From the NCBI GenBank assembly GCA_946800325.1, contig OX326957.1, positions 22,755,007 to 22,819,006 on the forward strand: a stretch of 64,000 bases of DNA, in the 5' to 3' direction. This stretch comes from Luzula sylvatica. Its lineage: Eukaryota > Streptophyta > Magnoliopsida > Poales > Juncaceae. Of this stretch, positions 19,164 through 56,870 are shown in pieces. The first letter of the stretch is position 1. Each line of letters begins with the position of its first letter. Both the position numbers and the translations under genes were made by a program. A model generated the notes under the pieces. The model ran no database searches. It was not told the DNA's origin and saw nothing but the letters and a program-made list of their open reading frames with translations.

Positions 19164-19284
19164 GCGGTGTTTAAGTCAATGGTTCGATTTAAATTTTCAG
19201 AATTTTAGTTCATAAAAAAATGTACTCACATCTTGGTTTTTCTTTGTGATCATTCTAGGTGTGTGTTTGTGGTGGAAGAAGTCT

Positions 19285-22200: not shown

Positions 22201-24678
22201 AATGGATGGCGAGTGTGCATTGACTACCGCAAGCTTAACAAGGCCACCAAAAAGGACCATTTCCCACTTCCTTTTATCGATCAAATGCTGGAGAGACTCG
22301 CAGGGAACCCTTTCTACTGTTTCCTCGACGGATTCTCGGGATACTTCCAAATTCCTATTGCACCCGAGGACCAAGCAAAAATGACATTTACATGCCCGTT
22401 TGGTACCTTCGCGTACCGACGCATGCCGTTTGGGCTCTGCAACGCACCGGGCACTTTCCAAAGGTGTATGCTCTCTATTTTTAGTGATTACATTTCAAAA
22501 TTTATTGAAGTATTTATGGATGATTTTTCGGTGTTTGGAGACTCATTTGATTCCTGTTTAGACCATTTGTCCCAAATACTGGAAAAATGCATCGAATCTA
22601 ATCTCGTTTTAAACTTTGAAAAGTGCCACTTCATGGTGAGTAATGGAATTGTTTTAGGTCATTCAATTTCAGAAAAGGGGCTCGAAGTCGACAAGGCAAA
22701 AATCGACGTAATAAAGACGCTGCCCTATCCAAAGACGGTGAAGGACGTGAGATCTTTCTTAGGCCAAGCTGGTTTCTATCGACGGTTCATAAAGGATTTT
22801 TCAAAGATCTCGCAGCCCATGTGCCAACTTCTCCAGAAAGACGTAAAGTTCGAATTTGACTCACGGTGCAAGGAATCATTCGACAATTTGAAGGACAAGC
22901 TTTGCTCTGCACCGATTATCAAACCACCGAATTGGGGGCTTCCATTCGAAATTATGTGCGACGCAAGTGATACGAGTGTGGGGGCAGTGCTTGGCCAAAG
23001 AATCGGCAAAGATCCTCACGTGATTGCCTATGCCTCGAAGACCCTCGTTAGCGCACAAAGAAACTACACAACTACTGAAAAAGAACTTCTTGCGATTGTG
23101 TTTGCTTTAGAAAAATTTCGTTCTTACCTTGTAGGTGCGAAGGTGATAGTGTTCTCTGATCACGGCGCGCTAAAGCATTTAATGAGAAAAAAGGAGGGCA
23201 AGCCTAGATTGCTGCGATGGATCCTTTTGTTGCAAGAATTTGATTTGGAGATCAAGGATAAGAAGGGCTGTGAGAATCTCGTGGCGGATCACCTAAGCCG
23301 ACTCCCGTTCATAGAAGACGATGCTGTACCGATTCGAGAGGAGTTTTCGGAAGAGCATATCCTCGCGGTTCAAATCGATACGCCTTGGTACGACGACTTG
23401 GTAAATTATATGGTTGCCAAGAAAATTCCGCCGAGTTTCACCAGATCTCAACGCGACAAATTAAAAAGCAACTCGCGATTCTACATTTGGGACGAACCAT
23501 TCCTGTACCGCGTATGTGCAGATCAAGTGATAAGGAAGTGTGCTCATCAAAACGAGGTTAAATCTATTTTGTCATTTTGTCATAATTTGCATTGTGGGGG
23601 ACATTTTGGAGTGACACGTACAGCCCACAAAGTATTAGAATGCGGTTTTTACTGGCCAACTCTTTACAAAGATGCTTCAAGCTTTGTAAAGGGTTGCGAA
23701 AAATGCCAAAGGACAGGAAATGTGAGTCGAAGAAATCAAATGCCCCTGAACAAAATTGTACCATGTGAACCATTCGATGCATGGGGCATTGATTTTATGG
23801 GACCATTTCCACCGTCCTTTGGATATACTTACATTCTTCTTTGTGTAGATTATGTGACAAAATGGATCGAAGCAATTCCAACGAAGCAAGCAGATTCGAA
23901 ATCAGTGTGCGAATTTCTCAAGAAGAATATCTTTCAACGTTTCGGCGTGCCACGAGTGCTAATCAGCGACCGAGGGAGTCACTTCTGCAATAAGAGCTTA
24001 CAAACCGTGCTAGAGAAATAGCACGTTAGCCACCGAACCTCCACAGCGTACCACCCTCAATCAAACGGGCAAGCCGAAGTCTCGAACCGAGAAATCAAGT
24101 CTATTCTGGAAAAGGTGGTGAACCCCTCAAGAAAGGATTGGAGCATCCGATTAGGCGACGCCTTGTGGGCATATCGTACAGCGTTCAAAACTCCAATCGG
24201 GATGTCCCCTTTCAAGATGGTGTACGGCAAAGCATGCCACTTACCCGTAGAAATCGAGCATAAGGCCATATGGGCCATTAAACAACTCAACCTCGACTAT
24301 CCGAACGATGCAATGGCCCGAAAACTCCATTTAGTCGAGCTAGAAGAATTTCGACAAAATGCCTATGACAATTCGAATTTATGCAAGGAAAAGGCAAACG
24401 CGTTTCACGACAAAATGATCAGAAAGAAAGAATTTAATGTGGGAGATAGTGTGCTTCTATTCAACTCCCGTCTCAAACTGTTTCCCGGGAAGTTGAAATC
24501 TCGCTGGATTGGGCCCTTCACGGTGACGAATGTAAATCCATTTGGAGTAATCGAAATCCAGAGCAACGACACGAAGGAAGAGTTCAAGGTGAATGGGCAC
24601 CGGCTAAAGCATTTCTACTCCGGTTTCGACAAAGGGTGGATGGACGAGCAAAAGCTCGGTTTGATGGAGCGTCAATGA
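19285..24678 (+). pseudogene. Gypsy gag-pol polyprotein, one nonsense codon
   Basis: One frame from the ATG at 19285 (MHNTRSRKG, like other Athila-type Gag starts; the ATG at 19246 only extends it) to 24678, broken by TAG at 24019-24021. In order, with residue numbers counted from the 19246 ATG: Gag (150-250), CCHC-like knuckle CGVCSATTHHTDEC near 325, protease MLDLGASINIMP near 645, reverse transcriptase with FCFLDGFSGYFQI-type block and catalytic FMDD near 1090, RNase H with CDAS and TTTEKELLA near 1240, integrase HHCC zinc finger near 1450 and the first two catalytic Asp residues ([14 protein letters not shown]). The third catalytic residue lies after the stop ([12 protein letters not shown]). 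The remaining 24022-24678 stays in frame. A single point mutation therefore separates this copy from an uninterrupted frame. Confidence 0.95.
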
Positions 24679-39283: not shown

Positions 39284-39919
<636 letters not shown>

Positions 39920-40827
39920 CACATACATATATAAAAAATACCTTTCAATTAGTTGAAATACATTCCAATTAATAGCTCCCATTGGTCAAAACTTCGCTCC
40001 CTAAATTATTCTTGAACTGCAAGTCGTGGAAAAGGGAAAGATAAGAAATTGGCAAACTGCTCATGCATTTTTGAGCAACCCTAATGCCAACAAATCTGAA
40101 AATTAGAAACCACTATATAAATTAAATTAGATCAATTAATCAATATATAAAAAATAATCTATAAAACATACCTGACAACATTAAAAACCCCACAAAAGAA
40201 AAAGTAGAACCTGAAAATGAAACTCTTGGAAGGGTATTAACGATTAATTAAGGCACTTGTAGAAAGGTATTGAAGATCAGCAATTAGGATTTACACGAAA
40301 TCCAGCAATCAGCTTCCATCTGACAAGAATTGAACAAAATTGATTTATCTATTTTCGATAAACAAATAAAATCAGCACAGCCAAGAGGAATCAACTCAAA
40401 ATGTGTACTAATCCACTGATAAGAGGAAAATAAAGCACCTTTTTGATATCTAATTTGGGGATTTTAGCCCTTTTGAATCACAACTTTATATATACAATTG
40501 TTCATATTTGAGATAACAAGAATATTTCTTCACTAAGTGTGTTTTACTGCTTAATTACAGGTTTTAGAAGGAAATTCTGGGAATTTGGAAAGTGTAGTTG
40601 TCTCCAACACGTCAAGAGGAATGAAAACGATATATTGTACCGATATATTCGGTACAAGAATGAGACGGGAGGCAAGCAATCATCATGATAGAAACTTACA
40701 CAAAAGTCCACACGAAAACCACTCAATCCTTAGCCCTTATCCTTCCCACCTACCTTTGGTGGAAATTACTTCATTACCCCCAATCCTCTCCACCAACTCG
40801 TGACCAATAAGAAGACTCCGTGAGTGC

Positions 40828-40835
40828 TATAAATA
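40828..40835 (+). promoter_or_regulatory. TATA box of solo LTR
   Basis: TATAAATA with an upstream CCAAT (40804), in the same context as in the full-length gypsy LTRs. Confidence 0.75.
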
Positions 40836-41509
40836 AGACCAAAAGGGCCACGAGTTGGGGGCGCCCTTCCCCCCGCTCTTCGGAGCACTTTCTCTCTCTC
40901 TCTCTCTCTTCTCTCTCCCTCTCAAGAACTTCCAAGAACCGTCAAGAACTTCCAAGAACCGTGAAGCACAATCAAGAACCTTCAAGATACTTCAAGATCA
41001 ATCAAGAAAAATCTCTCAAGGACTAGTCGAGACAAGGGAGCTCATCCCTTCGACAAATCCTTCTCAACCTTCGAAGATCGGACCGTGACAAGGAGCTATT
41101 CCCTACGGTGGATTTGAGAAGAAGTGCCGTGACTCGATCCGCGTTTCTTCGAAGTGATTGCGATCCGAGACAAGGGAGCTTCATCCTTTCGGGACAATCC
41201 ATCACTCTCGAGACAAGGAGCAAGGATCTTTCGGTGCGAGGCAAGGAGATAAGGAGCTTCACTTCGAGGCTTTCTCAACTAGGTGTACTCCTTTTCAATT
41301 ACTTGATTAATTGTTGTCTGATTGGATTTTGTTGTGTAAAGAATTCTCGGTTTAACGAATCTTTAGTTCTTTTTCTTTGCTCTAAATCTTCTTTGTTTGT
41401 TTGTGTGATTTTAGTGCTTGTTACTTAGTCTAATTACTTCTAAATTCGAATCCAAAACAAACCATCAAACTGCTCCCAATTCAAATCTCAAAACAGAATT
41501 CCAGAACTA

Positions 41510-41860
41510 CTTCCGTTATAATGGAACTCACACTGCGTTACCACGGACTAGACGGTTGATCCTTGAATATTCAGTTGGTTAGAACTCCGTTGTAACGCAC
41601 CTAGAGTTTCGTTTTAACGGACTAGTCAGAATTTCAATTCAAAGGAATCAATACAAGTGCGTTGTAACGGACATCGCGGTCCGTTGTAACGGATTAACCA
41701 ATCCGTTGCAACGCAACCACTGTTCGTTATAACGGACAAGTATAGTGCGTTATAACGGAGTTGCCTCCGTTGTAACGGACGTTCATCTCACTTTTAGCGA
41801 CAGAATTTTCACTCAAGTCCGTTGTAACGGAACCCACTTCCGTTGTAACGGACTATGTTC
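41510..41860 (+). promoter_or_regulatory. Array of TCCGTTRYAACGGA palindromes in the solo LTR
   Basis: About 12 copies, exact or with one to three changes, of the near-palindrome TCCGTTGTAACGGA / TCCGTTATAACGGA, 15-45 bases apart. They lie downstream of the TATA box, so in a full element they would be in transcribed LTR sequence. The arms contain AACGG/CCGTT, the core of MYB-type sites, including the mitosis-specific activator bound by MYB3R factors. The same motif array occurs in the copia leaders at 47703 and 53527. Confidence 0.7.
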
Positions 41861-42246
41861 TGTGAATTTTCTTCGTTATTTCTCATCTAGTTTTGGTTCA
41901 TTATTTGACGCATATACTCCTCGTGGAACGAACTTGCATATTTTTCACTATACACATATATTTTCACACTTGTTGATTGAACCGGGTTTTCGAACACAAC
42001 GATAATTTTGCACGCCAAAAACCCACTCATCATCCGCGCAAATTATACATCACCTCATTATCAATCAAGCAATTACCTCACAAATTTAGTTCAGGAGTAT
42101 CTTTTTTGTCTTGTCCTGAAGCTTTGATTGAGGGAAATTGAAAAGAGGAAGAGGAGATAACATCGTATCAGTGAGAGGGGTAGAGGAGGAGCTTCGCCGG
42201 TCGAGCACTGAAGAACTTTGTTAGTGCTATGTGGAAATGAGTTACA

Positions 42247-42267
42247 GATCGATCGATCGATCGATCG

Positions 42268-42320
<53 letters not shown>
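42247..42320. repeat. (GATC)n and (GA)n microsatellites
   Basis: A GATC run at about 42247-42270 followed by GA to 42318; the inverted counterpart in the left arm is shorter (36443-36490). Confidence 0.9.
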
Positions 42321-42321
<1 letters not shown>

Positions 42322-42452
42322 GAGAGATGAAACGGTCTTAGACTGGATCAAACTCGACGTTTATCATTAAAAATAGTAACCATCTTGATGAAGATCCAAC
42401 GATCAAAAACTTACAAGCAAAATCTCACCTCAACTTGTACAAGCTATATAGG

Positions 42453-42598
<146 letters not shown>

Positions 42599-42599
42599 C

Positions 42600-44713
42600 A
42601 TACAATGTCAAAATTGATGTGTAACAAGAGAAAACACACAATTTTCATGGTGTCCTCAAAATACTCTGAAGTAGAAGACTAACACACACAAATTTCTATT
42701 TTTTTAAAAATTTCTTACAAATACAAAAAGTGAAGTCTCTTCAAACCAAATCAATTATTCCATTTTCTAAAAAATGTCAAAATCGAAGTGTACCATGAGC
42801 AAAATACTTAATTTTCATGTTGTCCTCAAAATACTCTAAAATAGAAGACTAACACATACAAATTTTTATTTCCTAAAAAAATCCTTAAAAATGCAAAAAG
42901 TGAAGTCCTTCAAAACAAATCAAATAGTCAAATTTTCAACAAAATGTCAAGATTGAGTAGTAACACGACCAAAACACTTAATTTTATTATTGATCTCAAA
43001 ATACTTGGAACTAAAAGACTGACACACACAAATATATATTTCTATAAAAAAATATTATGAATACAAAAAGTGAAGTCTAACACCTTCAAAACAAATCAAT
43101 TATCATATTTTCTGAAAAATATCAAAATTTACTTGTAACACGAGATAAATACTCAATTTTCACTTTGTCCTCAAAATACTCGGAAATAGAAGACCAACAC
43201 ACACAAATTTCTATTTTTCAAAAAATTCATAAAAATGCAAAAAGTAAAGTCTAACAACTTCAAAATAATTCAATGATCTAATTTTATAAAAAATGTCAAA
43301 ATTCACGTGTAACACGAGAAAGACACTTAATTTTCATGTTGTCCTCAAAATACTCTAAAATAGAAGACTATCCCACACAAATTTCTATTTTTTTTTTAAA
43401 TTATTAAAATGGAAAAAAGTTAAATGTAACACCTTCAAACCAAATCAATTATCCCATTTTCTAAAAAATTGTCAAAATCGACGTGTAACACGAGCAAAAT
43501 ACTCAATTTTCATGTTATCCTCAAAATACTCTGAAATAGAAAACTAAAACACACAAATTTCTATTTCTTCATCTTAAAAATGCAAAAAGTGAAGTCTAAC
43601 ACCTTTAAAACAAATCAATTATCCAATTTTTTAAATATGTCATAATTGATGTGTAACACGACCAAAACACTTCATTTTCTTATTGACCTCAAAATACTCA
43701 TAAATAGAAGACTAATACACACAAATATCTATTTTTTCAAAAAATCTAATTAATGCAAAAAGGGGAGTTTAACACCTTCAAAACAAATCAATTATCCTAT
43801 TTTCTGAAAAATATCAAAATTGACTTGTAACACGAAAAAAATACTCAATTTTCACGTTGTCCTCAAAATACTCGAAAATAGAAGACTAGCTCACCCAAAT
43901 TTCTATTTTTTCAAAAACTTCTTAAAAATACAAAAAAAGTAAAGTCTAAAACCTTCTAAACAAATCAATTATCCCATTTTCTTAAAAATGTCAAAATAGA
44001 AGTGTAACACGATGAAAATACTCAATTTTCATTTTGTCCACAAAATATTTTGAAATAGAAAACTTACACACAAATATATATTTTTTCAAAAAATTCTTCA
44101 AATGCAAAAAGTCAAGTCTTAACACCTTCAAAGCAAATAAATTATCCAATTTTCTAAAAAATGTAAAAAATTGACGTGTAACACTTGAAAAATACACAAT
44201 TTCCATGTTGTCCTCAAGATACTCCGTTAATAAAAGACTAACACACACAAATATCTATTTTATTTTTAAAAAAATTAAAAATAAAAAAGATGAAGCCTAA
44301 CACCTTCAAAACAATTCACTTATTCAATTTTCTAAAAATGTCAAAATTGACGTGTAACACAAGAATAATTCTCAATTTCATGTTGTCCTCAAAATACTGT
44401 GAAATATAAGACTAACACACACAAATAATCTATTTTTACAAATATTTCTAAAAATTGCAAAAAGTGAAGTCTAACACCTTCAAAAGAAATCAATTATCCT
44501 ATTTTCGAAAAATATCAAAATTGATGTGTAACATGAGAAAAATACTCAATTTTGATGGTGACCTCAAAATACTCCGAAATAGTACAAATACAAAAGTTCA
44601 AGCCTAACACATTCAAACCAAATCAATTATCCCATTTTGTACAAAATGTCAAAATTGATGTGTAACACGACCAAGACACTTAATTTCTTGTTGACCTCAA
44701 AATACTGTTAAAT

Positions 44714-44745
<32 letters not shown>

Positions 44746-46260
44746 AATATCTATTTTTACATGCAAAAAGTGAAGTCTAACACCTTCAAAACAAATCAAT
44801 TGTTCTATTTTCTGAAAAATATCAAAATTGACTTGTAACATGAGAAAAATACTCAATTTTCATGTTGTCCTGAAAATACTCGGAAATAGAAGACTAATAG
44901 ACGCAAATTTCAATTCTTCGAAAAATTCTTAAAAATGCAAAAAATAAAGTCTAACACTTTCAAAACAAATCAATTATCCTATTTTGTAAAAATGTCAAAA
45001 TTCACGTGTAACACGAGAAAACACTCAATTTTCATGTTGTCCTCGAAATACTATGAAATAGAAGACTAACACACGCAAATTTCTATTATTTTTAATTTCT
45101 TGAAAATGCAAAAAGTGAAGTTTGACACCTTCGAACCGAATGAATTATCACATTTTCTAAAATATGACAAAATCGAAGTGTAACACGACCAAAATACTCA
45201 ATTTTCATGTTGTCCTCGAAATACTCTGAAATAGAAGACTAACACACACAAAATTCTATTTCTTCAAATATTTCTTAAAAATGCAAAAAGTAAAGTCTAA
45301 CAACTTCAAAACAAATCAATTATCCAATTTTCTTAAAAATGACATAATTGATGTGTAACACGACAAAAACACTTAATTTTCTTATTGACCTCGGAATACT
45401 CTGAAATATTAGAAAACTAACACACACAAATATCTATTTTTACAAAAAATTTATAAATGCAAAGGGTGAAGTCTAACACCTTCAAGACAAATCAATTATC
45501 CTATTTTCTGAAAAATATCAAAATTGACTTGTAACACGAGAAAAATTCTCAATTTTCACGTTGTCCTCAAAATACTTGGAAATAGAAGACTAACACGCAC
45601 AAATTTCTATTTTTTCAAAAAATTCTTAAAAATAAAAAAAGTAAATTCTAACACTTTCAAAATAAATCAATTATCCCATTTTCTAAAAAATGTCAAAATA
45701 TAAGTGTAACACAGGCAAAATTCCAACATATTGCGTTAAAAGAAGACTAACACGTACAAATATCAATTTTTTTTAAAAATTCTTAAAAATTCAAATCATG
45801 AAGTCTAAAAACGTCAAAACAATTCAATTATCCTATTTTCTAAAAATGTCATAATTAAAGTGTAACACGAGAAAAATTCTCAATTTCATGTTGTCCTAAA
45901 AATACTGAGAAATAGAAGACTAAAACACACGAATATCCATTTTTACAAACATTTCTAAAAATGGATAAAGTGAAGTCTAATACCGTTAAAATAAATCAAT
46001 TATCATATTTTGTTAAAAAGTCAAAACTGATGTGTAACACGATAAAACACTATATTTATCATGTTGTCCTAAAAATACCCCGAATACTCACACACACAAA
46101 TTTATATTTTTTTAAAAAATGCTTTAAAACGCAAAAAATGAAGTCTAACACCTTCAAACCAAATCAATTACACAATTTTCTAAAAAAGTGTCAAAATCGA
46201 AGTGTAACACGAGCAAAATACTCAATTTTCATGTTGTCCTCAAAATACTCTGAAATTGAA
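42600..46260 (-). repeat. Tandem array of ~175-bp units, right copy
   Basis: Inverted counterpart of the left array, with about 20 units. 42600-45012 pairs with the left arm; 45013-46260 holds further units of the same family with no partner on the left. Unit landmarks are GTTGTCCTCAAAATACT and AAGTCTAACACCTTCAAA. Confidence 0.9.
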
Positions 46261-46266
46261 GACTGA

Positions 46267-47444
46267 TGTTGGATATCGGCGTCACTACCGAGCTCCGCGC
46301 AGCGGATTGAAGAGCCCGGTCCGATCCGATCCCGAGGACCAAGTCGCCGATCCGATCATACAAATCCTATATACATGCAACTACCTATGAAATTAACTCT
46401 TAATTCATAGAGAATCACACCGCGTAAAATTGATGAAGGAAATACAGTTTAAGGATCAACCGTAAAAGTGTACACAAGGATAAACGAATGTAACCGTACA
46501 TTCGTGGTCATATCTTTCAGTAGGAAAATCCAATTTGATTGGTTCAAATTGGGTTAGATAGATAATAAGATTATCTACAACCTTCATATAGAAATATATT
46601 TCATATGAACGAAGTATCAGTTTCGTTTCTATGAAATACCGAAAGGGTGCAACAGTATGACATACAGTTAGTAAAACAGTCATAACTTTGCATACGAACT
46701 CCAATTGGGCCAGGACAAATTGGTTCGTGTAGATAATAATATTATCTACAACTTTCGTGTTGGTTTATTTTCTGTCAGAGGAATTTACCAATTTCGTATG
46801 GACAGAATACTGGACAGATTCATGCAACTTTCTGTGTGAAAGAGTGTATATTGGATATACATGTCTTTTGGCCAATCCTAATCATATGTGATATAAATAG
46901 GATAATTCTCTCTCATCTCAAGTGGTTTATTCAGTCCAATTCATTCAGAATATTCCAGAAATTGTGAGACAACTTTCTAGAGAGTGAAAGGGGGTAAAGA
47001 GAGAGAAACCGTGAAAAGGCGTTTTCCGGTATAGAGAATCAAACAATCGAGCAAGTTCGCCGGTGCATCGTCTAGGCAGTTGCACCCGCGAACGACGTCT
47101 TACGAGTCAAGGTGGATACACGTAGAGGAGCAACAATTGGGGCTCATTCAGTTGTGATCGATTCGGACGAGTAATTTCAGTCGGAGACGAAATCGAGTGA
47201 ATCGGCGACGTCAACAAACGGTGAAAGACACGTGGTGTGGGACGCGCGGATTGTCACCAACGTGACACGGAATAGAAGACTAGCAATCAACCCTTCGTGT
47301 GCAATCAATTTTGCACTAGTATGAATCTAATCTTCTTAATTGCATCGTACCCTTCGAAGTCATGGCGTGATCTCGGGAATAGGGCAACCGGGCCGGGCCT
47401 ACATATCCGCTGCGCAGGCCCGGGGCCGGGTAGAATCCCCAATA
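46267..47444 (+). repeat. Copia 5' LTR, copy 1
   Basis: 1,178 bp from TGTTGG to CCAATA. TATAAATA is at 46892-46899. The first ~90 bases resemble the reverse complement of the last ~90 (shared GCGCAGCGGAT, GCCCGG, TCCCGAG), an unusually long imperfect inverted repeat for an LTR. The left boundary rests on the TGTTGG start only, because the other LTR copies are truncated before it. Confidence 0.8.
46892..46899 (+). promoter_or_regulatory. Copia LTR TATA box
   Basis: TATAAATAGG, conserved at 52694-52701 and, on the minus strand, at 28130-28137. Confidence 0.8.
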
Positions 47445-47445
47445 G

Positions 47446-47457
47446 TGGTATCAGAGC
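47446..47457 (+). other. Primer binding site (initiator Met tRNA)
   Basis: TGGTATCAGAGC one base after the LTR, the usual copia primer site. Confidence 0.95.
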
Positions 47458-47702
47458 GATCGCCATGATTCGAGGGTCTAATCATAGTCGTATATTCGAT
47501 ATACGCATGGGTTATCAAAGTTCGTACCCGTTTGCATGATGTTACATATAGAGAAAGTCAAATTCCGTTCAAATCACAAGTAGAATTCGCTAGAGATCGA
47601 TCAAAAGTTGATTGAGAGTATCTAGGAATGATCGTGAAAAGGTTTCATGATTAATCATTTTCGAAACGAGCAAAAACAGACGAAACAACAGAAAAATCGC
47701 AT

Positions 47703-48315
47703 AGTCCGTTATAACGGACTGGTTAATCCGTTATAACGGACACTGTATGAGAAACAGGAAATTGAGAATTTCTGCGAAAATCACATAGTCCATTATAACG
47801 GACTTGGAGTTCCGTTGTAACGGACCCTGTATATGATGCAGGGATGTGAGGAGGACTGTGAATAAACGTATAGTCCGTTGTAACGGACATGGGTTCCGTT
47901 GTAACGGACCTTGTATGTGATACGAGGATGCGGGGATGCCTATGGTGTCTTTTGGAGTCCGTTGTAACGGATATGATCCATTGTAACAGAGTTTGTTCAC
48001 GAGTTAGTCCGTTGTAACGGACCATTGGTTGCGTTATAACGGACATGTTTCTAGCAATTTGGACAAAGGTTTGCAGAAAATAGCGTTGTAACGAACCTAG
48101 GTTGCGTTATAACGGACATGTTTCTAGCAATTTTGGCCAATCTCCGGAATAAATAGCGTTGTAACGGACCTAGGTTGCGTTATAACGGACATGTTTCTGG
48201 CAATTTTGGCCAATCTCCGGAATAAATAGCGTTGTAACGGACTAGTGTTCCGTTGTAACGGAGTGAAGGGAACTGGGGTTCCGTTGTAACGGACCATGGT
48301 GCGTTACAACGGAGT
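47703..48315 (+). promoter_or_regulatory. Array of 18 TCCGTTRYAACGGA palindromes in copia leader, copy 1
   Basis: I count 18 sites in about 610 bases, from exact GTCCGTTGTAACGGAC and perfect-palindrome TCCGTTATAACGGA to variants such as TGCGTTATAACGGA. The last part is a ~74-bp unit repeated about three times, each with two sites. The array lies between the primer site and gag, inside the RNA leader. It could act as DNA (MYB-type sites downstream of the promoter) or as RNA (self-complementary segments). Neither is shown. Confidence 0.8.
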
Positions 48316-48597
48316 CCGGACTAGTTTCTGTTTGCTGATTTTGTTATCGTGATAACTTTGGTTACAAAACTCGGAATTTTGAGTTCTTTATATCGATATG
48401 ATCGGCATCAATCATTCTAGCATATTAGATAATTAATTATTTAGAATAATTAGTCTCCCTAAATAAATCATATGCATTTCGAAAATCTTGTGATAGTGAT
48501 ATAATATGATTATGTCACGAATTATTTAAACATGAATGTCATGATCCCTCATAATATTTAAGTCATAGAAATGCCTTCCATATCATCAACCATCGAA

Positions 48598-48942
48598 ATT
48601 GGTATCACAATATGTGTGTTTCTAGGCCTTCGTCATGCACACATGTTGATGGTACTAATGGGTGGCAAGCGTTAAATGGGGACTTACGTGTTTCTAGGCC
48701 TTCGTCATGCACGTGAGTAGTTCATTTGAACGATACGTTTGATATGGTTATGACTTAACCGTCCAAGCCAATCCGATTGGAGTTCGGGGCATAGTTAGAA
48801 TGCACACACGGAACTGGGATTGTATGTGATACGATCCATCACCGAAATTCTAAAAGGTTCGAGAGTCGCATATGATGCGATTGGATTATATCCTACCTAT
48901 ATAAGCGAGATCCCACTCGATAGGCCTTCGTCACTTGTGGGA
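48598..48942 (+). other. Three leader hairpins sharing an AGGC-NNNN-GTC loop, copy 1
   Basis: Hairpin A (48598-48659): a 21-pair stem with one bulge and G-U pairs, inner arms ATGTGTG/CACACAT. Hairpin B (48671-48731): ACTTACGTG/CACGTGAGT plus an outer AAATG/CATTT. Hairpin C (48911-48942): TCCCAC/GTGGGA. All three loops are 19-20 nt and carry AGGCCTTCGTC. A fourth short hairpin, TCGCAT/ATGCGA with a 3-base loop, lies near 48867-48881. Pairing was read by eye. The likely setting is the genomic RNA leader, where packaging or dimerisation signals are expected. Confidence 0.65.
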
Positions 48943-49102
48943 GGATTGCGAAACATGGATCTCGGGTGTTATGGACTTGGAGTCCTGTATCGGTATGAGG
49001 GTTATCGATTCGATAAAATAACACTATTAATATAATCATGATGTAAGCCTATAGGATAACTACGCAACGTTAGTAATCAATCTTTTATTTCATTTGTAGA
49101 AT

Positions 49103-52100
49103 ATGTCTTCTAGTAACACCAACACCATGTCGATTAGATCGACATTAGAAAAGGATAAGCTAGTGGGTCGGAACTACTTGGACTGGCACCGAAACCTGAG
49201 AATAGTTCTTAGGCAAGAGGGCAAAAGTCACGTATTGGATACGGAACTAGTGGAACCGGGCCCCGATGCTACGGCCGAAGAAAAGGCCGCGTTTGAGAAA
49301 CTTAAGAAGGACTCGAATGATGTTACGTGCCTCATGTTGGCATGTATGGACGCTAGTCTTCAAAAGCAGTTTGAGGACTCGGATGCGCACATAATAGACG
49401 TTGTGCTCAAGGAAATGTTTCAAGAGCAGGAGCGTTTTGAACGGTTCAGTACACTCAAAGAGTTGGTAAACTGTAAGATGCTTTATGGGTCTTCGGTGAG
49501 CACTCACGTTTTGAAAGTGCAAGCTCTCATAGACCGTCTAGAGAAGCTAGGAGAGAAATTGTCGAAGATTATGCAACAAGATTTGATCTTGTTGGCACTT
49601 CCTCCAACGTTTTCTCCGTTTGTGACTAACGATCACATGCATTCGAAGAATAAAACGATCACTGAGCTTCACGGAATGCTCAAGAATTATGAGTCGGAGA
49701 TGTTGAAGGCATCCGGGGAGAACAAGACAAAAGTTGCTGGGAATGTTCTCACGATTCAGAAAAAGGATCGTAAGAGATCGATGTCCAAGGGCAGTTCGGC
49801 TAAGAAACGTTCGAAGCCGAATAAAAAGGGAAAGGAGAAATCCAAGGATGCGACGTGTTACCATTGTCACAAGACTGGACATTGGAAGCGCAATTGCAAG
49901 GCTTACCTCGATGAGGTGAAGAAGGGCAATACGGCTTCGGAAGCCGGTCCATCAGGTATTAACGTTATCGAAATTAATCTTTCAACTATGACTAATTGGG
50001 TATTAGATACCGGTTGTGGGACTCATATTTGTCGAAATATGCAGGTTCTTCAAAATAGTCGAAGGTTGAAGAAAGGCGAAGTTGATCTACGAGTCGGGAA
50101 TGGAGCAAGAGTTGCTGCGTTTGCCGTAGGAGTAGTTAATTTGACTTTGCCAAGTGGACTTATATTAGTACTAAATAATTGTTATTATGTACCGACATTA
50201 TGTAAGAACATAATTAGTGTGTCGAAATTAGCTAAGGATGGCTATGAATTTATTATTAAGAATAATGAATTTTCTATATGTAAGGATAATATTATCTATG
50301 GAAATGTTCTATTAAAAAATGGTCTTTATGTGTTGGATTTTGATCACGAAAATGATAAGTCGCATTATAATGTTAATACGAAAAGGATAAAACCTAAAGT
50401 TGATAATCGTACTTTCTTTTGGCATTGTCGTCTCGGTCATGTGAATGAGAAACGCATTGCTAGACTCCATAAAGATGGAATGCTAGATTCATTTGAATTC
50501 GATTCATATGGGAATTGCGAATCTTGTTTGCTTGGCAAGATGACAAGGGCACCATTCTCCAAGGCCGGAGAGCGGTCCAACGACTTATTGGAACTCATAC
50601 ATTCAGATGTGTGTGGACCGATGAGCATCAAGGCAAGAGGAGGCTATCGATACTTTGTTACATTTACGGACGATTATAGTAGATATGGATATATTTACTT
50701 AATGCGTACTAAAGCAGAGACCTTGGAAAAATTCAAAGAGTTTCAAAACGAAGTTGAAAATCAACTAGGCAAGAAAATTAAAGCCATTCGATTAGATCGA
50801 GGAGGCGAATATTTGAGCTATGAGTTTGAGGACCATCTAAAAGATTGTGGAATAGTTCCACAATGGACTCCGGCAGGAACGCCACAATGGAATGGCGTGT
50901 CTGAGAGGAGAAATCGGACCTTGTTGGACATGGTTCGATCCATGATGAGTCAAACTTCCCTTCCAAAATCGTTTTGGGGATTTGCCCTAGAGACAGCGGC
51001 TTACTTATTAAACCGCATACCTTCTAAATCGGTTGAAAAGACGCCTTATGAGATTTGGTCCGGAAAACCTCCGGTGTTGTCTTTTATTCGGATATGGGGA
51101 TGTCAAGTTTACGTCCGAAAATTAATGTCGGACAAACTAGATCCTAAATCTGAAAAATGTATATTTGTTGGATATCCCAAAGAAACTCGAGGTTATTATT
51201 TTTATAATCCTGACGAAAATAAGATTTTTGTCGCTCGTAGAGGTACCTTCTTGGAGGAGGAATTTATATCTCAAAGAGTTATAGGAAATAAAATAGATCT
51301 CGATGAAGTTGGAGATCCAGAAATTAACACAGAACCGATGAATATTGATCCGGATTCGTCAAATGTTGATGATCCGGAGTCAAGTGCACAAGGCGCAATT
51401 CGTAGATCGGGTAGGATTCGTCAAGAGCCTATACGATATGGTTTTATCGTGGCAAATGACGATGAAGTCGTATTCATAGATGATGAACCGACATCTTATC
51501 GCGAGGCTATGAAAAGCGAGGATTCCATTAAGTGGCAAACTGCCATGAAATCCGAGATTCAATCCATGTACGATAATCAAGTTTGGAACTTGATTGATCC
51601 ACCTCCCGGGGTTAAACCAGTGGGATGTAAGTGGGTCTTCAAGAAGAAGACCGACATGGATGGGAATGTAAACACTTATAAAGCACGGCTTGTGGCGAAA
51701 GGTCTCAAACAAATTCATGGTATAGATTATGAAGAAACGTTTTCTCCCGTAGCAATGCTTAAATCCATACGGATCTTACTTGCTATTTCTGCGTATTATG
51801 ACTATGAGATTTGGCAAATGGATGTCAAAACCGCATTCCTTAACGGGAACTTAGGAGAGGATGTGTACATGACACAGCCCGAGGGTTTTGTCGATTCAAA
51901 GAGTCCGGATAAAGTGTGCAAGTTGCAACGATCCATTTATGGATGGAAGCAAGCTTCTCGGAGTTGGAACATACGTTTCGATGAAGTTATAAGCGAATTT
52001 AACTTCGTGAAAAACGTAGAGGAACCTTGTGTATACAAGAAGGTTAGTGGGAGCCGCGTTATATTTCTTGTACTATATGTAGACGACATCTTGATCATAC

Positions 52101-52253
52101 GAAACGACATTCCGATGCTTACGGATGTTAAGAAGTATTTAAATACTCATTTCGCTATGAAAGATTTGGGCGAGGCCGCTTATATATTAGACGTGAGGAT
52201 TTATAGAGATAGATCCAAGAAATTACTCGGCTTGAGTCAAAGCACGTACATTC
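49103..52253 (+). pseudogene. Copia gag-pol polyprotein, 3'-truncated
   Basis: Open for 1,063 codons, but the last ~14 come from LTR sequence. Start MSSSNTNTMS follows the leader directly. Domains: Gag (1-200) with the KLVGRNYLDWHRNLR type start, zinc knuckle CYHCHKTGHWKRNC near 252, protease WVLDTGCGTHIC near 300, integrase zinc finger from HCRLGHVNEKR to CESC near 445-475, integrase core with Asp in LIHSDVCGPM, Asp in IRLDRGGEY and Glu in NGVSERRNR, then reverse transcriptase with QMDVKTAFLNG near 910 and catalytic YVDDILI near 992. RNase H is missing, so the copy cannot complete replication. No internal stop or frameshift was seen up to the break. Lineage within Ty1-copia was not determined. 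Confidence 0.93.
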
Positions 52254-53268
52254 GGATCAACCGTAAAAGTGTACACAAGGATAAACGAATGTAGTCGTAT
52301 ATTCGTGGCCATAACTTTCAGTAGGAAAATCCGATTTGAATGGTTCAAATTGGGTTAGATAGATAATAAGATTATCTACAACCTTCATGAAGAAATATAT
52401 TTCATATGGACGATGTATCAGTGTCGTTTCTGTAAAATACCGAAAGGGTGCAACAATATGACATACAGTTAGTAAAACAGTCATAACTTTTGCATACGAA
52501 CTCCGATTGAGCTGGGCCAAATTGGGTTGTGTAGATAATGAGATTATCTACAACTTTCGTGTTGGTTGATTTTCTGTCAGAGAAATTTATCAATTTCGTC
52601 TGGACAGAATACTGACCAGGTTCATGCAGTTTTCTGTGTGAGAGGGTGTATATTGGATATACATGCCTTTTGGCTAATCCTGATCCTATTAGGTATAAAT
52701 AGGATATTTTCTCTCTCCTCACTAATGCAATTCTACAGAATTATTCTGCCCAATACACAAGAAAAAGAGCAAATTCAGATTTGACCTTTTGTGAGTGAAA
52801 AGGTGCGAAGAGAGAGAAATCGAGAAAGGAGTTTCTCGAGTGATAGAGAATCGATTAGATCGAGCAAGTTCGCCGGTGCATCGTCTAGGCAGGTGCATCC
52901 GCGACCGACGTCTTATGAATCACCGTGGATACAAGTAGAGGAGTGACGTTTGTGACTCTTCGATTGTGATCGACTCGAGTAAGAAAGACGGTGGAAACGC
53001 TTGGACGCACAAGGACGAAGTCGAGTGAACCGGCGTAGCATACGATTGGTGAAGGACGCGTGGTGTGGGACGCGCGGATTGTCACCAACGTGACAGGAAA
53101 TAGAAGGCGGCGATCAACCCTTCGTGTGCCATCAATTTGGCACTGGTATAGATCTATCCTTCTAATTGCATCGTACCCTCGAAGTCGTGGCGTGATCTCG
53201 AGAATCGGGGAACCGGACCGGGCCTTCATTCTGCTGCGCGGGCCCGGGATCGGGGATATTCCCCAATA
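52254..53268 (+). repeat. Copia LTR, 5'-truncated, between the two copies
   Basis: Matches positions from about 46453 to 47444 of the first LTR; ends CCAATA and is followed by its own primer site. It has TATAAATA at 52694-52701. The first ~185 bp are missing at the junction with the truncated gag-pol. Confidence 0.93.
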
Positions 53269-53269
53269 G

Positions 53270-53281
53270 TGGTATCAGAGC
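53270..53281 (+). other. Primer binding site, copia copy 2
   Basis: TGGTATCAGAGC directly after the second LTR. Confidence 0.95.
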
Positions 53282-53526
53282 GATCGCCATCGATTCGAGG
53301 GTCGAATCATAGTCGTATATTAGATATACGCACGGGTTATCAAAGTTCGTATCCGTTTGCATGATGTTACATATATAGAATGTCAAATTCCATTAAAATC
53401 ACAAGTGAAATTCGCTAGAGATCGATCAATAGTTGATTGAGAGTATCTAGGAATGATCGTGAAAAGGTTTCATGATTGATCGTTTTGGAAACGAGCGAAA
53501 ACAGGCTGAACAACGCAAAAATCGCA

Positions 53527-54065
53527 TAGTCCGTTGTAACGGACTGGTTAGTCCGTTGTAACGGACACTGTATTGGATACAGGAAATTGGGAATTTCTGC
53601 GAAAAATCACATATTCCGTTATATCAGACTTGGAGTCCGTTGTAACGGACCCTGTATAGGATGCGGGGGTGTGAGGAGGACTGTGAAAAACGCATATTCC
53701 GTTGTAACGGACTTGGAGTCCGTTGTAATGGACCTTGTATCTGATACGAGGTTGCGGGGATGCCTAGGGTATCTTTTGGAGTCCGTTGTAACGGACACGT
53801 TCCGTTGTAACGGAGCTCTACGCAGTTGGTCCGTTGTAACGGACTGTATGTTGCGTTGTAACGGACTGGTCTCTGGAAATTTGGACAATGGTTTGCAGAA
53901 AATAGCGTTGTAACGGACCTAGGTTGCGTTATAACGGACATGTTTCTGGCAATTTTGGCCGAACTATGGAATAAATAGCGTTGTAACGGACACGAGTTCC
54001 GTTGTAACGGAATGCCAATAACACTGGATGTCCGTTGTAACGGACTATGGTGCGTTACAACGGAC
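53527..54065 (+). promoter_or_regulatory. Array of 16 TCCGTTRYAACGGA palindromes in copia leader, copy 2
   Basis: I count 16 sites, most as GTCCGTTGTAACGGAC. The arrangement follows copy 1, but individual sites differ (for example one degenerate TTCCGTTATATCAGAC near 53616) and the ~74-bp unit is present fewer times. Confidence 0.8.
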
Positions 54066-54351
54066 TGGTTTCTGGTTGCTGATTTTGTTTTCGTGATAAC
54101 TTTGGCTACACAACTTGGAATTTTGAGTTCTTTATATCGATTTGATCGGCATCAATCATACTAGCATATAATTAGATAATTATTTAGAATAATTAGACTC
54201 CCAAATAAATACATATGCATTTATGAAAATCTTGTGATAGTGATATAATTGGATTAATTATGTCACGAATTTAGAAACATACAATGGTATGATCCCTCAT
54301 AATATTTAAGTCATGGAAATGCCTTCCGTATCCACAACCACCGAGTTTGGT

Positions 54352-54690
54352 GTTACGTTTCACGTGGGTTCAGGCTAAAGTCGGGCACGTGATATTGTAA
54401 TTATCGAAAGGGTGGCAAGCGTTAAATCGGGACTTGTGAGGCACAGGCTAAAGTCGACTCACTAGTAGCCTATTTGAACGATACGTTCGAGATGGTTGTG
54501 ACTTAACCGTCCAGGCCAATCAGATTGGAGTTCGGGGCATAGATAGGATGCACACACGGAACTGGGATTGTATGTGATACGATCCATCACCGAAATCCTA
54601 TAAAGGTTCAAGAGTCGCATTGGATGCGATTGGATATAATCCTACCTAAATAACGGGATCCCACCCGATAGGCTAAAGTCACTTGTGGGA
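54352..54690 (+). other. Three leader hairpins sharing an AGGC-NNNN-GTC loop, copy 2
   Basis: Hairpin A (about 54352-54401): CACGTG/CACGTG plus an interrupted outer stem. Hairpin B (54421-54479): ACTTGTGAG/CTCACTAGT plus outer AAAT/ATTT. Hairpin C (54659-54690): TCCCAC/GTGGGA. The loops all carry AGGCTAAAGTC, where copy 1 has AGGCCTTCGTC. The fourth hairpin TCGCAT/ATGCGA near 54614-54628 keeps its stem and changes its loop. Confidence 0.65.
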
Positions 54691-54849
54691 GGAACGGAAA
54701 TATGGGTCTTGAGTGTTATGGACTTGGAGTCCCGTATCGGTATGAGGGTTATCGATTCGATAAAATAACACTTTCATATAATCATCATATAAGCCCTATA
54801 AGATAAGTACGCAACGTTAGTAATCAATCTTTTAGTTCATTTGTAGATC

Positions 54850-56437
54850 ATGTCTTCTAGTAACACCAACACCTTATCAATTAGATCGGTATTAGAAAAG
54901 GAAAAGCTAGTGGGTCGGAACTACTTAGACTGGCACCGAAACCTGAGAATAGTTCTCAGGCAAGAGGGCAAGAGTCACGTATTGGATACGGAACTAGTAG
55001 AACCGGGCCCCGATGCTACGGCCGACGAAAAGGCCGCGTTTGAGAAACTTAAGAAGGACTCGAATGATGTTACGTGCCTCATGTTGGCATGTATGGACGC
55101 TAGTCTTCAAAAGCAGTTTGAGGACTCGGATGCGCACATAATAGACGTTGTGCTCAAGGAAATGTTCCAAGAGCAGGAGCGTATTGAACGGTTCAGTACG
55201 ATCAAGGAGTTAGTAAAATGCAAGATGCCTTCGGGGTCTTCGGTGAGTACTCACGTTTTGAAGGTGCAAGCTCTCATAGACCGTCTTGAGAAGCTAGGAG
55301 AGAAATTGTCGAAGATTATGCAACAAGATTTGATCTTGTGTGCACTTCCTCCAATGTTTTCTTCGTTCGTGACTAACTATCACATGCATTCGATGGATAA
55401 GACGATCCCTGAGCTTCACGGAATGCTCAAGAATTTTGAATCGGAGACGTTGAAGTCGTCCGGAGAGAACAGGGCAAGAGTTGCCGGAAATGTTCTCACA
55501 ATCCAGAATAAGGATCGTAAGAGATCAAAGTCCAAGGGCGGTTCGGCTAAGAAACGTTCGAAGCCGGATAAAAAGGGAAAGGAGAAATCCAAGGATGAGA
55601 CGTGCTTTCATTGTCACAAGGCTGGACATTGGAAGCGCGATTGCAAATCTTACCTCGAGGAGGTGAAGAAGGGCAAGGCGGTTTCAGCGACCGGCCTCTC
55701 AGGTATTAACGTTATTGAAGTTAATATTTCAACTATGACTAATTGGGTATTGGATACCGGTTGTGGGACTCATATTTGTCGAAATATGCAGGTTCTTCAA
55801 AATAGTCGAAGGTTGGAAAAGGGCGAAGTCGATCTACGCGTCGGGAATGGAGCAAAAGTTGCTGCGTTTGCCGTAGGAGTAGTTAATTTGACTTTGCCTA
55901 GTGGACTTATTTTAGTACTAAATAATTCTTAGTATGTACCAACGTTATGTAAGAACATAATAAGTGTGTCGAAACTGGCCAATGATGGCTATGAATTCGT
56001 TATTAGGAATAATGAATTTTCGATATGTAAGGATTCTATTATCTATGTAAATGGTCTGTTAGAAAATGGTCTTTATGTGTTGGATTTCGATCACGGAAAT
56101 AATAAGTCCATATATAACGTTAATGTAAAAAGGATTAAACCTAAAGTTGATAATCGGACTTTCTTTTGGCATTGTCGTCTCGGTCATGTGAATGAGAAAC
56201 GCATTGCTAGACTCCATAAAGATGGACTACTAGACTCATTTGAATTGGATTCATTTGGGAATTGCGAATCTTGTTTTCTTGGCAAGATGACTAAGGCGCC
56301 GTTCTCCAAGGTCGGAGAGCGGTCCAACGATCTATTGGAACTCATACATTCCGATGTGTGTGCACCGATGAGCATCGAGGCAAGAGGAGGTTATCGATAC
56401 TTTGTTACGTTTACGGGCGATCATAGTAGATATGGAT
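54850..56437 (+). pseudogene. Copia gag-pol copy 2, nonsense codon and truncation
   Basis: Begins MSSSNTNTLS and follows copy 1 through Gag, the knuckle CFHCHKAGHWKRDC and protease WVLDTGCGTHIC. TAG at 55930-55932 replaces a Tyr codon of copy 1. The frame then continues through the integrase zinc finger (HCRLGHVNEKR) to the first catalytic Asp (LIHSDVCAPM) and is cut near 56437. The rest of integrase, reverse transcriptase and RNase H are absent. Confidence 0.92.
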
Positions 56438-56870
56438 CGCAGAGTTGATTCCACGACGTAAAATGTCCATCGGAGTGACCGTAAAGCCATTGTTTTGCCT
56501 TGCCCCTGAGAGAAAAAGGAAAAAGAGTTAGCATGATAGTATCATTCGAAACTCCATTTACCTTTATCGTGCTCGCTATTTCGTATAGATTTTGTAAGTG
56601 AGCGTGCGGATCCTCCATCGCACCACCACCGAACTGATTTGCTTGCACCATATTTAGAAGCGGTGTTTTGAGCTCAAAATTGTTTGCAGCGATACCAAGT
56701 GGCGCGATGCTTCTCCCAATTGCCGTGGCGCTGGGTGAAGTGTATTCACGTAGAGCACGTGCGCGAGGCGGAACTGGTCGGACATTCTCTTCTTGATTCG
56801 GTTGGTTTTGCTCCATCGTAATCTGCGGTGGCCTTCGCGCTTTGCTTCTTAGATTGTATCTTTCTGCCAA
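56438..56870 (-). pseudogene. Gypsy Gag N-terminal fragment
   Basis: Minus-strand frame starting MAERYNLRSKARRPP, followed by a Pro/Arg-rich linker and the beginning of the Gag core (NFELKTPLLNMVQANQFGG, then DPHAHLQNLYEI and FPFSLRGKAKQWLY), as in Athila-type Gag. It breaks at about 56437 against the copia copy; the remaining Gag and all of pol of this element are missing. Confidence 0.9.

What the first reader, a model, noticed from the sequence alone, without database searches (positions are those of the whole stretch)
48598..54690. Three leader hairpins with re-paired stems and a loop motif swapped in concert
In copy 1 (48598-48942) three hairpins carry AGGCCTTCGTC in their loops; in copy 2 (54352-54690) the three equivalent hairpins all carry AGGCTAAAGTC. 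The stems of A and B changed sequence between copies yet still pair (A: ATGTGTG/CACACAT versus CACGTG/CACGTG; B: ACTTACGTG/CACGTGAGT versus ACTTGTGAG/CTCACTAGT). The stem of C is unchanged. Stem covariation points to selection on RNA structure; an identical four-base change in all three loops points to a shared recogniser or loop-loop contact. In a retroelement leader, packaging by Gag or RNA dimerisation is the obvious idea. The core GGC-NNNN-GTC can itself close a 4-base loop. I know of no described element like this.
Basis: partly seen in the sequence, partly recalled or inferred. Interest (0 to 1): 0.88.

Follow-up and report, generated by a model that had tools for sequence, protein, structure and literature searches.

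The report
Three matching RNA hairpins before gag
Two related jumping genes in a plant-type genome each carry, just before their gag gene, three RNA hairpins that share one loop sequence within the element, although that loop and two of the three stems differ between the elements, which looks like a changeable "address label" on the element's RNA.

Summary
AGGCNNNNGTC occurs six times in the 64-kb window, always as the loop of hairpins A, B and C in the leaders of two Ty1/copia elements. All three loops read CTTC in copy 1 and TAAA in copy 2. Stems A and B were largely replaced yet still pair in the same register. A's arms differ at 20 of 33 sites against gag dS 0.20, C's at 4 of 30.

New: L002, a distant copia element (gag 35% identical) in a Streptomyces assembly, has CAAA-loop hairpins 476, 390, 306 and 176 nt before gag. 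The window loops lie at 475/403/177 and 474/401/176. Its leader is otherwise not measurably alike, and L001, another relative, lacks the pattern.

Best reading: a multi-hairpin recognition signal with a subfamily-specific loop, most likely read by Gag in packaging. Self-kissing and a covarying cis partner were tested and not supported. Hairpin C and three of four L002 hairpins fold little or no better than shuffles. The host genome could not be searched, so the many-copy test is missing.

The parts
47446..47457 (+). primer-binding site of copy 1 (TGGTATCAGAGC), start of leader 1
   Evidence: exact match
47705..48313 (+). array of palindromes TCCGTTRTAACGGA in leader 1 (17 sites at up to 2 mismatches)
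48604..48655 (+). hairpin A, copy 1; core AGGCCTTCGTC at 48624-48634; loop tetranucleotide 475 nt before gag ATG
48675..48725 (+). hairpin B, copy 1; core at 48696-48706; loop 403 nt before gag ATG
48905..48945 (+). hairpin C, copy 1; core at 48922-48932; loop 177 nt before gag ATG
49103..52294 (+). gag-pol open frame of copy 1 (gag, Pol_BBD, gag_pre-integrs, rve, SH3_retrovirus, RVT_2), which runs into the next LTR near the end of the RT domain (profile matched to 213 of 244)
52254..53269 (+). LTR of copy 2 (start = start of similarity to the first LTR), joined directly to the truncated pol of copy 1
53270..53281 (+). primer-binding site of copy 2, start of leader 2
53530..54064 (+). palindrome array in leader 2 (16 sites at up to 2 mismatches)
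54352..54400 (+). hairpin A, copy 2; core AGGCTAAAGTC at 54372-54382; loop 474 nt before gag ATG
54425..54475 (+). hairpin B, copy 2; core at 54445-54455; loop 401 nt before gag ATG
54652..54695 (+). hairpin C, copy 2; core at 54670-54680; loop 176 nt before gag ATG
54850..55932 (+). gag and the start of the protease region of copy 2; the frame ends at a stop after 360 codons

Best explanation
The leader RNA of this plant Ty1/copia lineage carries a three-part recognition signal about 475, 400 and 176 nt before the gag start codon. Each part is a short apical helix with a tetraloop, set above an asymmetric internal loop and a lower stem. The lower stems only hold the loops up, so their sequence drifts or is replaced as long as it pairs. 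The loops are read by one shared recogniser, so all three carry the same four bases and change together when the subfamily changes (CUUC and UAAA in the window, CAAA in a distant element). The most likely reader is the element's own Gag (zinc-knuckle region) during selection of genomic RNA for packaging. Repeated copies would give cooperative binding, and a subfamily-specific loop would keep related elements from packaging each other's RNA. Shown: loops, stems, register, divergence pattern and position. Inferred: that the RNA is read by Gag, and that packaging is the purpose.
For: Motif restricted to the six loops. Same stem register in 4 of 4 A/B hairpins and re-pairing of changed positions. 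Same-tetraloop triples with 3-bp helices reach P 0.024 and 0.018 against shuffles of the last 700 leader bases of copies 1 and 2. Hairpin A arms 20/33 changed against dS 0.20 (P 4e-7) while C arms are 4/30 changed. Leader divergence in 50-column steps is mostly 0.02-0.18 but 0.42, 0.31 and 0.46 over A and B; other raised steps are 0.33, 0.24, 0.23 and 0.20. The identical four-base change sits in C with its neighbours intact, so a tract copied into C spans at most 11 bases in copy 2 and 13 in copy 1 (sequence). Third element L002: C-CAAA-G hairpins at 812, 898 (one mismatch), 982 and 1112 with closing-pair probabilities 0.98, 0.99, 0.63 and 0.99. No other triple of same-tetraloop hairpins closed by G-C or C-G, with 4-bp helices and distinct stems, was found in 440 window segments or in L001, L003 and L004; the window's own A-C cannot score in that test because their apical helix is 3 bp. 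Loop positions 476/390/306/176 in L002 against 475/403/177 and 474/401/176; chance of matching the first and last this closely is 0.0006-0.0009. Gag is under purifying selection, dN/dS 0.28. Precedents: GACG tetraloops in retroviral packaging (PMC516450, passages); Ty1/Ty2 loop divergence proposed to keep the families apart (PMC5454406, passages).
Against: Only two leaders of this family were available. L001, another relative, has no same-loop triple closed by C-G or G-C pairs. Without the closing-pair rule same-loop triples are common: 19 in 564 plus-strand window segments, 14 in 46 of L001, and L002 has a second one in its coding region. For L002 the shuffle P is 0 of 500 (4-bp helices) and 0.008 (3-bp) in a 552-base stretch that I chose after seeing the motif, but 0.022 and 0.174 over its last 1,000 bases, and CAAAG was not among the 14 best of 167 k-mers listed in a general scan. 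Three of the four L002 hairpins fold little or no better than shuffles (z 0.0, -0.6, -0.7; the other -2.4), as do C1 and C2. The middle loops match less well (390 against 403/401) and the one at 306 has no counterpart. The L002 leader is not alike in sequence (z 1.6-1.9), so common descent of its hairpins is not shown. Copy 1's A and B share 25 bases, so conversion between hairpins explains part of the concert. No binding data exist. The knuckle change is not clearly adaptive.
Confidence: 0.5

Rival explanations
1. Concerted evolution without a reader: the loops were homogenised by template switching or gene conversion between hairpins during reverse transcription, using AGGC and GTC as microhomology.
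For: In copy 1 hairpins A and B share 25 identical bases, so exchange between them is likely to have happened (sequence).
Against: C received the 4-base change with its neighbours intact, which needs two switches within 11 to 13 bases. Conversion does not explain why both arms of stems A and B changed and still pair.
Confidence: 0.2
2. The hairpins pair loop to loop (RNA dimerisation or an intramolecular kissing complex), which forces the three loops to match.
For: Copy 1's AGGCCU is a 6-base palindrome and GGC can pair with GUC; self-duplex energies are -9.3 and -5.7 kcal/mol.
Against: Among all 256 tetranucleotides in this frame CUUC ranks 74th and UAAA 176th for self-pairing; the cross pair of the two types (-6.9) is stronger than UAAA with itself. 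Copy 2 lacks the palindrome.
Confidence: 0.1
3. A host RNA-binding protein, not Gag, reads the loops, for export or for translation past the long leader.
For: The leaders hold 46 and 29 upstream ATGs, so gag translation probably needs some special route; the hairpins lie directly before gag.
Against: A host reader would not be expected to demand different loops in two elements of one genome (inference).
Confidence: 0.15
4. The four-base agreement and re-pairing are chance or alignment artefacts in a leader rich in inverted repeats.
For: Many other hairpins exist in these leaders; C folds no better than shuffles; same-loop triples with any closing pair are not rare; runs of four adjacent substitutions occur elsewhere too.
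Against: Exact restriction of the 11-base frame to six loops, register identity, and matching first and last positions in L002.
Confidence: 0.05

Closest known systems
GACG tetraloops of gamma- and alpharetroviruses
   Same: leader hairpins with a shared tetraloop, involved in packaging and possibly dimer contacts (PMC516450, passages); that murine leukaemia virus has a pair of them side by side is recalled
   Different: the loop is GACG there and found in several viruses; here CUUC, UAAA or CAAA, different between relatives but equal within an element
Ty1 SL1a/SL3a kissing loops in the yeast Ty1 leader
   Same: Ty1/copia-type element, hairpin loops in the packaging region, loop divergence proposed to keep Ty1 and Ty2 apart (PMC5454406, passages)
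   Different: there two loops are complementary to each other; here three loops are identical and not specially self-complementary
BARE dimerisation and packaging signals (barley Ty1/copia)
   Same: plant Ty1/copia signals; BARE2, which cannot make its own Gag, keeps them and is packaged by BARE1 particles (PMC3735527, passages)
   Different: the passages seen describe no repeated same-loop hairpins; the original description of the BARE signals was not read
Sirevirus palindromic repeat motifs
   Same: family-specific short palindromes repeated in non-coding parts of plant Ty1/copia elements (PMC2829016, passages)
   Different: those lie before the TATA box in the LTR or beside the ENV gene, most with a CGG-CCG core; they resemble the TCCGTTRTAACGGA array here, not hairpins A-C
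Conserved Hairpin Site of fungal GalEa elements
   Same: conserved leader hairpin in Ty1/copia elements (PMC5445492, passages)
   Different: a single hairpin directly after the LTR with conserved stem and the less conserved loop, the reverse of this case

Membership tests
Ty1/copia LTR retrotransposon | copia-type gag and RVT_2 reverse transcriptase, with integrase before RT | tested here: met
   PF14223, PF13976, PF00665, PF25597 and PF07727 in that order in copy 1
Ty1/copia LTR retrotransposon | primer-binding site directly after the 5' LTR | tested here: met
   TGGTATCAGAGC at 47446 and 53270
retroviral/retrotransposon packaging signal | structured RNA in the leader next to gag | tested here: met
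   hairpins A-C 475-176 nt before gag ATG; re-paired stems; folding support weak for B2 and C
retroviral/retrotransposon packaging signal | binds Gag and is needed for encapsidation | not testable with these tools
   needs binding and packaging assays
GACG-tetraloop packaging hairpins | GACG tetraloops | tested here: not met
   loops are CTTC and TAAA
retroviral dimer initiation site | palindromic loop | tested here: not met
   copy 1 holds AGGCCT, copy 2 has no such palindrome; self-pairing rank 74 and 176 of 256
Ty1-type kissing loops | mutually complementary loops that covary | tested here: not met
   loops identical; 5 and 5 complements of 8 or more pairs in copies 1 and 2, none at homologous places (places compared by hand)
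any Rfam family | match at the family's gathering score | tested here: not met
   4 matches up to E 5 over 46300-55000, none reaching its gathering score

The most novel reading that the evidence does not exclude
A fast-changing RNA packaging code: in a broad plant Ty1/copia lineage, three hairpins at fixed distances before gag share one interchangeable tetraloop that is matched by the element's own Gag, and subfamilies diverge by switching all three loops together, making a barrier to cross-packaging.
Probability: 0.3. Interest if true: 0.85.

Novelty: new variant of a known kind. Interest (0 to 1): 0.62.

Why it matters
How plant Ty1/copia elements choose their own RNA among many related transcripts is little known. 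A signal whose reading key (one tetraloop, three times) can be seen directly in DNA would let the specificity of each subfamily be listed from genome sequence, and Gag-loop matching tested across many natural pairs. It would also offer a simple account of how subfamilies stay separate and how parasitic elements borrow a helper's Gag.

Tried and rejected
Search for more copies: gag in viral contigs (none confirmed), a gag alignment of 14 rows (none), RT alignments of 2 and 4 rows (none). Genome contigs gave 2 loci, L001 and L002. Plasmid records gave 4 RT hits, of which I fetched 2; gag found nothing in plasmids, and leader DNA nothing in plasmids or phages. Two translated leader frames of copy 1 gave no protein relatives. 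A third leader inside the window was looked for: the palindrome array recurs at 41512-41852, and LTR pieces lie on the minus strand without a leader match.

Rejected: a cis partner that covaries with the loops; self-kissing as the reason for equal loops; a known Rfam element; the gag hot-spot as proof of a reader (NC dS is raised too). Sequence alignment as proof that the L002 leader is homologous failed (z 1.6 and 1.9; L001 2.6 and 1.8; L001 with L002 -1.6). The count of structure pairs was not used because MAFFT shifted B2 by a gap. A general scan for repeated k-mers with complementary flanks ranked the core of copy 1 first of 170, that of copy 2 seventh of 149, and did not list CAAAG among the best 14 of 167 in L002. 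Counts left things out: one search counts only positions paired in copy 1; one search left out simple-repeat and satellite parts on the plus strand; one search left out window 39301-46300. Papers opened but not used: PMC4974528 (term search found nothing), PMC5086612 (passages on cross-packaging).
Full report
WHAT THE REGION IS. The window is plant-type DNA: the organism names I see among the 120 gag relatives listed (of 517) are flowering plants. From about 46,430 to 56,450 it holds two Ty1/copia elements head to tail. Each has a primer-binding site TGGTATCAGAGC (47446, 53270), a leader of 1,657 and 1,580 bases, and gag starting at 49103 and 54850. Copy 1 has the domains gag, Pol_BBD, gag_pre-integrase, integrase, SH3 and RVT_2; its frame runs into the LTR of copy 2 near the end of the RT domain. 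Copy 2's frame ends at a stop after 360 codons. The two LTRs differ at 161 of 985 aligned sites and gag-PR at 88 of 1,095; gag-PR dS is 0.20 and dN/dS 0.28. I take them to be separate insertions from two subfamilies whose Gag was under constraint.

THE OBSERVATION. All six copies of AGGCNNNNGTC in the window are the six loops. Copy 1 reads CTTC three times, copy 2 TAAA three times. Each core can form GGC/GTC with a tetraloop above an asymmetric internal loop. In A1, B1, A2 and B2 the lower stem sits in one register (5' position = 3' position + 3). Other registers give fewer pairs, although in A1 a shift by two also gives 8 pairs in a row because of its GT repeat. Positions paired in copy 1 and changed on both sides still pair in 5 of 5 (A) and 7 of 8 (B, core-anchored), with null P 0.020 and 0.019; B anchored on its outer ends gives 3 of 4, P 0.19. 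The arms of A changed at 20 of 33 sites, well beyond dS (P 4e-7), and those of C at 4 of 30. In 50-column steps the leader differs by 0.02-0.18 in most steps but by 0.42, 0.31 and 0.46 across A and B; other raised steps are 0.33 (48244, 33 columns), 0.24, 0.23 and 0.20. Outside those three steps it differs at 163 of 1,423 sites (my subtraction). Runs of four or more adjacent substitutions also occur elsewhere in leader and LTR, so a four-base block change alone is not unique. What is unusual is the same change three times.

LIMITS. Folding alone does not make the case for every hairpin: z-scores are -3.5, -2.3 and 0.2 for A1, B1, C1 and -2.3, -1.0 and 0.0 for A2, B2, C2. In a 370-nt context the GGC/GTC helix has probability 0.70-0.79 in copy 1 and 0.81, 0.49 and 0.16 in copy 2. 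Copy 1's A and B share 25 bases, so exchange between hairpins has probably occurred.

INDEPENDENT ELEMENT. A genome-contig scan with gag gave two relatives in bacterial assemblies, which I take to be plant contamination: L001 (36% identity, best segment) and L002 (35%). In L002 a scan of tetraloop hairpins found C-CAAA-G at 812, 982 and 1112 with helices of at least 4 bp. In the 552 bases between its repeat array and gag, a stretch chosen after the motif was seen, 0 of 500 shuffles reached three such hairpins (3-bp helices: P 0.008); over the last 1,000 bases P was 0.022 (3-bp: 0.174). The same test on the last 700 bases of copies 1 and 2 with 3-bp helices gave 0.024 and 0.018. A fourth L002 hairpin, at 898, has one mismatch and a closing probability of 0.99; the other three have 0.98, 0.63 and 0.99. 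Folded alone, one of the four is better than shuffles (z -2.4) and three are not clearly so (0.0, -0.6, -0.7). The loops lie 476, 390, 306 and 176 bases before gag ATG, against 475/403/177 and 474/401/176 in the window: first and last agree within 2 nt, the middle ones do not, and the one at 306 has no counterpart. Placing 3 or 4 hairpins at random matches the first and last positions this closely in 0.0006-0.0009 of trials; two of the three positions within 3 nt in 0.002-0.005. The tolerances were set after seeing the positions. Requiring a C-G or G-C closing pair, as in the window loops, 4-bp helices and distinct stems, no other triple was found in 440 window segments (satellite and simple repeats left out on the plus strand) or in L001, L003 and L004 on either strand; the window's own A-C cannot score there, since their apical helix is 3 bp. 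Dropping the closing-pair rule makes triples fairly common: 19 in 564 plus-strand window segments, 14 in 46 of L001, and a second one in L002 coding DNA. L001 has no C-G or G-C closed triple. By eye I noted one hairpin there 477 bases before its gag ATG, but there are 97 hairpin calls in its last 1,000 leader bases, so I give that no weight. The leaders of the window and L002 are not alike in sequence (z 1.6 and 1.9), and no primer-binding site was found in L002. Position and equal loops are shared, sequence is not.

MECHANISM. Equal loops on drifting stems are what one expects if stems are scaffolds and loops are read by one partner. A cis RNA partner was sought: 5 complements of 8 or more pairs covering the variable four bases exist in each copy, none at homologous places (compared by hand). 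Self-pairing of loops is not special (CUUC rank 74, UAAA rank 176 of 256). A protein reader is left, and for signals next to gag the element's Gag is the first candidate (general knowledge of retroelements). The zinc knuckles differ at 3 of 14 positions (CYHCHKTGHWKRNC, CFHCHKAGHWKRDC), but silent change is raised there too (dS 0.36), and L002 with its CAAA loop has the N form, so no simple match is claimed. The 46 and 29 upstream ATGs leave room for a translation role.

KNOWN KINDS. The functional parallels are GACG tetraloops in retroviral packaging (PMC516450, passages) and the Ty1 kissing loops, whose divergence from Ty2 was proposed to keep the families apart (PMC5454406, passages). BARE2 keeps packaging and dimerisation signals and is packaged by BARE1 particles (PMC3735527, passages). 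In the nine paper searches answered (one search listed nothing), read as listings except for the papers cited, I saw no description of repeated same-loop hairpins in plant copia leaders; most subscription papers are not in that library. PMC12786077 (passages) describes host factors of plant LTR elements; the passages seen name no such signal.

VERDICT. Real, structured and probably functional. The loop concert is seen in two subfamilies, and a similar arrangement in one distant element out of two examined. New variant of a known kind, with a cheap decisive test once the host genome can be searched.

Noticed in passing
window 47705-48313, 53530-54064 and 41512-41852: The palindrome TCCGTTRTAACGGA is repeated 17, 16 and 11 times (up to 2 mismatches, plus strand). 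The third array lies in a different flanking context from the two copia leaders, so two repeat families seem to share one palindrome.
   Followed up: partly
window 28589-27717 and 17590-17426, minus strand: An LTR of the same family split by about 10 kb of other DNA, which includes a long open frame at 19246-24021 that reads like a gypsy-type polyprotein (not tested); no leader match beside it.
   Followed up: partly
window 48496-48518 and 54240-54266: Another leader hairpin in which copy 2 is longer by pairs on both arms (GTGATATAAT/ATTATGTCAC against GTGATATAATTG/TAATTATGTCAC), a paired insertion.
   Followed up: no
window 44003-46300: Tandem satellite with a unit near 174 bases shortly before the first LTR.
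   Followed up: no
L001 1-5141, L002 1-5169, L003, L004: Plant-type copia sequence in bacterial records (Geminicoccus harenae, Streptomyces fumigatiscleroticus, and 'plasmids' of Kitasatospora cathayae and Streptomyces camelliae), probably contamination.
   Followed up: partly
L002 about 600-730: A tandem array of AAAACCCGAGTTGGA-like units upstream of the hairpins (read), as the window elements carry their palindrome array upstream of theirs.
   Followed up: no
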